Shown here: positions 61,166 to 61,280 of the stretch, piece after piece | Position numbering within the stretch: the stretch's first letter is position 1 | How the letters are laid out: every line of letters begins with the position of its first letter | Assembly: GCA_030789695.1 (NCBI GenBank) | Contig: CM061141.1 | Span: forward strand, 163,647,579 to 163,711,578 | Origin: Scilla litardierei | Taxonomy: Eukaryota; Streptophyta; Magnoliopsida; Asparagales; Asparagaceae | Direction: 5' to 3' | Length of the DNA stretch: 64,000 bases | The notes under the pieces: generated by a model | What the model saw: only the letters and a program-made list of their open reading frames with translations | Database searches by the model: none | What the model was told of the DNA's origin: nothing | Made by a program: the position numbers and the translations under genes

Positions 61166-61280
61166 CTAACAGACAATCTAACAATCAAACCCTATTCTAG
61201 CAAACAATCATATGCAAGCAAAAAACATAATCTAACAACCAAAACTAACTAAAGAAAGAAACAACTAGCCAGAGGGTTAC
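61166..61280 (-). other. Putative spliceosomal intron 1 between gag and protease of element I
   Basis: Sense GCAG|GTAACC and TCTGTTAG|GTGTG, 115 nt, T-rich with a TTGATTG-type branch context. Removal joins EVIAG to VILVCTFPARVLFD in phase. Unspliced RNA would end gag at a TAG 32 nt into the intron (61249), so splicing could choose between Gag and Gag-Pol. Confidence 0.78.

What the first reader, a model, noticed from the sequence alone, without database searches (positions are those of the whole stretch)
61166..61280. Intron between gag and protease in a Tekay-like chromovirus
A 115-nt T-rich stretch with GT and AG ends sits exactly where Gag should pass into protease. Removing it restores the usual protein junction in phase; keeping it ends Gag at a TAG inside the stretch. 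Ogre elements are known to use an intron for gag-pol fusion, but I know of no such arrangement in Tekay/Del. Splicing would set the Gag to Gag-Pol ratio, while the packaged RNA must stay unspliced.
Basis: partly seen in the sequence, partly recalled or inferred. Interest (0 to 1): 0.88.

Follow-up and report, generated by a model that had tools for sequence, protein, structure and literature searches.

The report
Two introns in a plant retrotransposon
A copy-and-paste mobile element in a plant genome seems to carry two introns inside its own genes, one exactly where its shell protein should pass into its enzymes, so splicing would decide which proteins its RNA makes while the RNA that is copied back into DNA must stay unspliced.

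Summary
A 115-nt stretch (61280 to 61166) with GT and AG ends lies at the Gag/protease junction. It shifts the frame, and unspliced reading stops at a TAG inside it. It is 50% T; no other 115-nt window of the coding region reaches that.

I read both stretches as spliceosomal introns.

Site 1 looks like a trait of a small clade. P0002 has extra residues there, and Asparagus models run into foreign, T-rich-looking sequence there. Four nearby unnamed ORFs read straight through, as do most listed relatives. None of the 98 listed proteins spanning site 2 has an insert.

Unspliced RNA would give Gag only; splicing site 1 adds protease and reverse transcriptase; splicing both adds a whole integrase.

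Not shown: any spliced RNA, any sister copy from the same genome (that search did not complete), and Tekay membership against reference elements. This copy has eight premature stops. It is a new variant of a known kind (Ogre, BARE, EVD).

The parts
61166..61280 (-). Candidate intron 1, 115 nt, inside a GGT codon, between gag and protease
   Evidence: GT...AG ends, frame shift, 50% T
61249..61251 (-). TAG that ends Gag if intron 1 is kept
61184..61188 (-). Branch-point-like TTGAT, its A 20 nt from the 3' end of intron 1 (motif YTNAY recalled)
   Evidence: consensus match only
58675..58745 (-). Candidate intron 2, 71 nt, phase 0, in the integrase
   Evidence: GAG|GTAAAT...GTGCAG|GAG; frame changes here against P0002, P0184 and P0187; 44% T
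58701..58703 (-). TAG that ends Pol inside the integrase if intron 2 is kept
61281..62397 (-). gag, from its ATG to the junction; three in-frame stops in this copy
58746..61165 (-). pol part 1: protease, RT, RNase H, start of integrase; two in-frame stops in this copy
57769..58674 (-). pol part 2: rest of integrase; three premature in-frame stops; end taken as the TGA at 57771-57769
57728..57740 (-). Purine-rich tract before the 3' LTR
   Evidence: AAGGTGGGGAGGA; named by eye
54904..57727 (-). 3' LTR, 2824 bp, TG...CA
62542..64000 (-). 5' LTR, cut by the end of the window
   Evidence: 96.8% identical to the 3' LTR over 1460 columns

Best explanation
The 115-nt stretch is a spliceosomal intron between gag and protease in a chromovirus-type Ty3/gypsy element, and the element carries a second one (71 nt) in the integrase. 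Unspliced full-length RNA is translated into Gag alone, because a TAG follows nine codons after the shared glycine. RNA spliced at site 1 lets ribosomes pass from Gag into protease, RT and RNase H. RNA spliced at both sites also encodes a complete integrase. The RNA that is packaged and copied must keep both introns, because the DNA copy has them. Shown: position, phase, ends, composition, and no other frame change within Pol against P0002. Supported, not shown: site 1 is shared with the nearest relatives. Inferred: splicing itself, its effect on the Gag to Gag-Pol ratio, and packaging of unspliced RNA.
For: Two stretches of 115 and 71 nt, both GT...AG, both T-rich (0 of 4071 and 0 of 4203 same-length windows elsewhere reach them) and both frame-shifting, lie where the flanks otherwise abut. 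Pol aligns to P0002 in two pieces, residues 43-850 and 849-1147, that meet at site 2. P0002, from an unnamed ENA record, has about 25 extra residues just after VITG, opening G-K-P where the window opens G-N-P. Asparagus P0124 reads VITG and then ENSSFLVLFACELPYFVLPDDIMI to its end; Asparagus P0031 leaves the line after VIT into ALPDDRMIGFIM, sharing LPDD-MI with P0124, so two loci seem to hold related foreign sequence at this place. P0184, P0186, P0187 and P0190 read through both sites or, for site 1, are shown to. The tree places the window with P0031/P0137 and P0002.
Against: No RNA evidence and no sister copy at DNA level. Donor 1 has C at +5 and acceptor 1 is TTAG (consensus recalled). Stretch 2 has no YTNAY motif near its 3' end; the only one is 59 nt away. 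In P0002 the residue at the shared glycine is C, so its 3' boundary is unclear. Asparagus P0137 reads VITGKVLV with no gap, as it would spliced or intronless. Asparagus rows are gene predictions. None of 98 listed proteins spanning site 2 has an insert, so stretch 2 has no support from relatives. This copy is dead.
Confidence: 0.8

Rival explanations
1. Both are real introns, but they do no regulatory work: short host-type introns were gained neutrally and are removed almost always. Enzymes for mobility come from spliced RNA, and the rare unspliced RNA is what gets copied; the Gag to Pol ratio is set otherwise.
For: Stretch 2 lies inside the integrase, where a Gag/Pol switch has no obvious use, and looks younger (0 inserts in 98 listed proteins). 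Both are short and T-rich, as the plant introns described in PMC3735527 (passage).
Against: Stretch 1 sits exactly at the Gag/protease boundary, the one place where partial splicing gives a useful product, and seems kept in the nearest relatives. Near-complete splicing would starve the element of genomic RNA.
Confidence: 0.12
2. Private insertions or decay of this copy that look like introns by chance.
For: The copy is dead, with eight premature stops; its PBS region does not show a clear primer site (judged by eye); stretch 2 is seen in no listed relative.
Against: Chance of slidable GT...AG ends is 0.45-1.35% per stretch, about 1 in 5,800 for both with the element's own figures if independent; both are also T-rich extremes. 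The LTRs show two gaps in 1460 columns, so indels are rare. Nearest relatives show signs of a stretch at site 1.
Confidence: 0.05
3. A translational recoding site (frameshift, bypass or readthrough) between gag and pol, not an intron.
For: Gag and Pol lie in different frames with a stop between them, as in elements that use recoding (recalled).
Against: 115 nt of T-rich sequence without homology to relatives would have to be bypassed or translated; the same construction recurs inside the integrase, where recoding has no evident purpose.
Confidence: 0.03

Closest known systems
Ogre (Ty3/gypsy, Tat lineage)
   Same: An intron between ORFs, spliced from part of the transcripts so that the whole polyprotein can be made (PMC6317226, passages).
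   Different: Ogre's intron lies between GAG-PROT and RT, about 274 bp on average; here the stretch lies between gag and protease and a second one is in the integrase.
BARE1 and EVD/EVADE (Ty1/copia)
   Same: A short U-rich intron near the gag end that sets Gag against Pol; BARE1's is 104 nt (PMC3735527, passages; PMC12786077, passages).
   Different: Opposite logic: there the unspliced RNA encodes Gag-Pol and splicing yields Gag only; here unspliced RNA would give Gag only.
Bianca (Ty1/copia)
   Same: Two ORFs separated by about 172 bp on average (PMC6317226, passage).
   Different: Different superfamily; the passage gives no splicing evidence for it.
CRR (centromeric chromovirus of rice; identity recalled)
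   Same: A Gypsy element said to splice its transcripts (PMC3735527, passage).
   Different: There splicing removes rt and leaves two ORFs; it does not join Gag to Pol.
Tekay/Del chromoviruses such as Bongo of beet
   Same: Long LTRs (about 2.6 to 3.0 kb for complete Bongo LTRs; 2.8 kb here), gag-protease-RT-RNase H-integrase order (PMC3605345, passages).
   Different: Beta chromoviruses have gag and pol in one continuous ORF (same paper).

Membership tests
Spliceosomal intron | GT...AG ends with precise restoration of the reading line | tested here: met
Spliceosomal intron | U-rich relative to flanking exons (plants) | tested here: met
   50% and 44% T, against 22/35% and 21/25% in flanks
Spliceosomal intron | Branch-point-like motif near the 3' end | tested here: inconclusive
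   Stretch 1: TTGAT, 20 nt; stretch 2: none near the end
Spliceosomal intron | Spliced RNA observed | not testable with these tools
   No RNA data at hand
Ogre | Intron between protease and RT | tested here: not met
   Protease and RT lie in one open frame, 61184-59139; stretch 1 is upstream of protease
BARE/EVD-type Gag splicing | Unspliced RNA encodes Gag-Pol; splicing yields Gag only | tested here: not met
   Unspliced reading stops at 61251-61249
Tekay/Del chromovirus | RT phylogeny within Tekay | not tested
   No reference Tekay element was in the trees
Tekay/Del chromovirus | Chromodomain at the integrase C-terminus | tested here: inconclusive
   Pfam Chromo not matched in the last pol piece sent or in P0002 at E 0.001; the piece ends at a premature stop. 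The aligned tail resembles one by eye
Tekay/Del chromovirus | PBS complementary to tRNA-Met | tested here: inconclusive
   No clear primer site after the 5' LTR, judged by eye; that a Tekay family uses tRNA-Met: PMC2533021, passage
Tekay/Del chromovirus | gag and pol in one ORF | tested here: not met
   Frames differ at both sites. Described for Beta chromoviruses (PMC3605345, passage); may be typical rather than defining

The most novel reading that the evidence does not exclude
A clade of chromovirus-type elements has moved its Gag to Gag-Pol switch from translation to splicing, in steps: unspliced RNA makes shells only, one splice adds protease and reverse transcriptase, and a later-gained intron lets a whole integrase be made only from fully spliced RNA. 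Genome RNA and enzyme RNA would then be physically different molecules, as in retroviruses, with a need to export and package unspliced RNA.
Probability: 0.3. Interest if true: 0.82.

Novelty: new variant of a known kind. Interest (0 to 1): 0.66.

Why it matters
Retrotransposons pass through RNA, so a sense-strand intron should vanish at the first round in which spliced RNA is copied. An element that keeps two introns implies that it copies unspliced RNA while making its enzymes from spliced RNA. This makes the open question of how plant retrotransposons keep translated and packaged RNA apart directly testable, in a group (chromoviruses) for which a single gag-pol reading frame has been described. 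It would also mean that ORF-based surveys can score such elements as broken.

Tried and rejected
Own-genome search for sister copies (genome search, where 'own'): the identical request was sent 16 times, with waits of 285-290 s before the last three. Each time the answer was that the machine was busy or could not be reached. Five scans of viral contigs gave no relative. One scan of prokaryote contigs gave one locus, L001, filed under Streptomyces clavifer; its match begins at residue 101 of P0002, past the junction. Probes of stretch 1 and of its two flanks against the window found themselves and only short weak matches, so no second copy of this part is at hand.

P0038 as an intron witness was dropped: it starts after the junction, and its end leaves the line before site 2 in what looks like a frameshift. 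Recoding, random decay and a mobile insertion were considered. For the last, only AGGT stands at both ends of stretch 1, which any intron in an AG|GT site shows. One script placed the gag frame a base off and listed false stops; it was redone.

Literature: searches; in their listings I saw no title or abstract opening that reports an intron in a Tekay/Del element. Lists were cut (for example 25 of 60 papers, 25 of 293, 20 of 55, 15 of 34). I read passages of 13 papers (and 71 again for the first), no whole text. Two papers asked for by id, a 2003 one on recoding and a 2008 one on Ogre, are not held; what I say of Ogre comes from passages in other papers.

It supports the reading. I left the confidence at 0.8, since P0124 is a prediction like the others.

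Full report
What is there. The element lies on the minus strand. The 3' LTR is 57727-54904 (2824 bp); the 5' LTR begins its match at 62542 and runs off the window. The two are 96.8% identical over 1460 columns, with 44 mismatches and two gaps. On the scale of the table in PMC3605345 (passage: 5.23% LTR divergence given as 1.75 million years) that is about one million years. Between them lie gag (62397 to 61281) and pol (61165 to 57769). Of five window pieces sent to Pfam, four match: retrotransposon gag; protease, RT and RNase H; integrase zinc finger; Tf2-1 SH3 domain. The zinc-knuckle piece of gag matches nothing, and the piece around site 2 was not sent. The copy is dead: three premature stops in gag and five in pol.

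Site 1. The Gag frame ends GTG GAC GAG GTT ATC GCA G. The next bases are GTAACC, and the stretch ends CTGTTAG before GTGTGATTTTGG, which the protease frame reads as (G)VILVCTFPARVLFDFGAS. Kept in the RNA, the stretch adds NPLASCFFL after the shared glycine and ends at a TAG. Four unnamed JGI proteins run straight through: EEVITGNIRV (P0184), EEVITGKIMV (P0186), GEVVTGKIMV (P0187), GDVVAGNISI (P0190). The window's flanks fit this line with no residue lost or gained.

Site 2. In the integrase, AGATACATGGAG is followed by GTAAATTATTTTACTC and, 71 nt later, GTGCAG by GAGATCGTACGACTTCAC. P0002 reads RYMEEIVRLHG across this point. tblastn of P0002 against the region gives two pieces, residues 43-850 and 849-1147, which meet here in different frames; P0184 and P0187 break at the same place. 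Reading on into the stretch meets a TAG after 14 codons. By the usual integrase layout (recalled), the site falls between the first and second catalytic acidic residues, so an unspliced product should lack an active integrase.

Is it chance? T content is 50.4% and 43.7%. Of 4071 and 4203 overlapping windows of the same lengths elsewhere in 57800-62400, none reaches these values; for GC, 0 and 15 windows are as low. A random cut of either length can be slid to GT...AG in 0.45-0.62% of cases over the window and 1.27-1.35% within the element; for both together, with the element's figures and if independent, about 1 in 5,800. The windows overlap and I looked for the second stretch after knowing the first, so these are guides and not tests.

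Relatives. Searches were by protein, because no collection of plant DNA was at hand. Three searches listed 235 distinct proteins; two of them were capped at 120 of about 7,950 matches each, and only listed rows were examined. In a tree of 70 of 88 non-redundant RT-RNase H rows (155 proteins had at least 400 aligned residues) the window groups with P0002 and P0038 (100/99); the next set (99/95) adds P0023 and the P0184/P0186/P0187/P0190 group. In a smaller tree with the Asparagus proteins, the window is sister to P0031 and P0137 (90/89), P0002 is outside these (96/93), P0038 outside that (97/93), and the deeper order, including the P0184 group, is not resolved.

State of site 1 in the nearest relatives. 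P0002 has about 25 extra residues just after VITG, opening G-K-P where the window opens G-N-P. Its 3' boundary is unclear, since it has C where the shared G should be. Of 20 Asparagus proteins examined, 13 do not reach the site. P0124 reads VITG and then ENSSFLVLFACELPYFVLPDDIMI to its end. P0031 reads VIT and then ALPDDRMIGFIM, sharing LPDD-MI with P0124. P0134 reads VIT and then unrelated residues. P0138 has VIT-SKN-GKVLV, three extra residues. P0135 and P0139 skip across the site. P0137 reads VITGKVLV with no gap. These are gene predictions; they show foreign sequence and model breaks at the site, not spliced RNA, and P0137 fits either view.

Wider. 102 listed proteins (P0184 included) span site 1 in one alignment to P0184: 84 have no gap, 13 only a deletion, and five an insertion (P0085, P0207, P0198, P0153 and Asparagus P0138). 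P0002 does not span in this test. 98 (P0002 included) span site 2: none with an insertion, 9 with a deletion. Some of these rows are spliced gene models. I take the ENA and JGI rows to be plain ORF calls, which is an inference from their records.

Reading. Site 1 is best read as an intron gained in the clade of the window, the Asparagus elements and P0002. Site 2 is a younger gain, not shared with P0002. The element is a reverse-transcribed copy with nearly identical LTRs and still holds both stretches, so, unless they arose after insertion, the RNA it came from was unspliced at both. From this follows the proposed division: unspliced RNA serves as genome and as Gag messenger, spliced RNA as Gag-Pol messenger. 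No call shows splicing, a protein ratio or packaging.

What is known. Ogre uses an intron to join its ORFs, but between protease and RT; Bianca has two ORFs about 172 bp apart (PMC6317226, passages). BARE1 and EVD use a short intron in the opposite sense, to make Gag only (PMC3735527, passages; PMC12786077, passages). CRR is mentioned as spliced (PMC3735527, passage). A 2025 review says plant LTR elements generally lack introns, with Ogre and EVADE as notable exceptions (PMC12786077, passage). Beta chromoviruses, Tekay clade included, have gag and pol in one ORF (PMC3605345, passage). Nanopore reads in sunflower show spliced isoforms of some elements, while Tekay elements were absent from its highly expressed set (PMC7730604, passages), which warns that RNA evidence for this clade may be hard to get. 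My searches showed no report of an intron in a Tekay/Del element, but the library is open-access only and several lists were cut, so this is weak evidence of novelty.

Limits. Sister copies in the same genome were the decisive test, and all 16 identical requests failed. Tekay membership is plausible but untested against reference elements. Stretch 2 lacks a branch-like motif near its 3' end and has no support from relatives.

Noticed in passing
58675-58745: The second intron-like stretch, in the integrase of the same element; not in the finding as given.
   Followed up: yes
46984-47547 and 52612-53175: Two nearly identical 187-aa minus-strand ORFs about 5.6 kb apart, on either side of a gag-like ORF (49555-51492); they look like parts of the LTRs of another element (by eye).
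   Followed up: no
32128-34517: Long minus-strand ORFs made of a repeated motif such as LLYNRYPNSLIQFLMSKFSYP, which suggests a tandem repeat (by eye).
   Followed up: no
L001:111-3296: A 3816-bp contig filed under Streptomyces clavifer encodes a plant-like Ty3/gypsy Pol, 55% identical to P0002; it looks like contamination.
   Followed up: no
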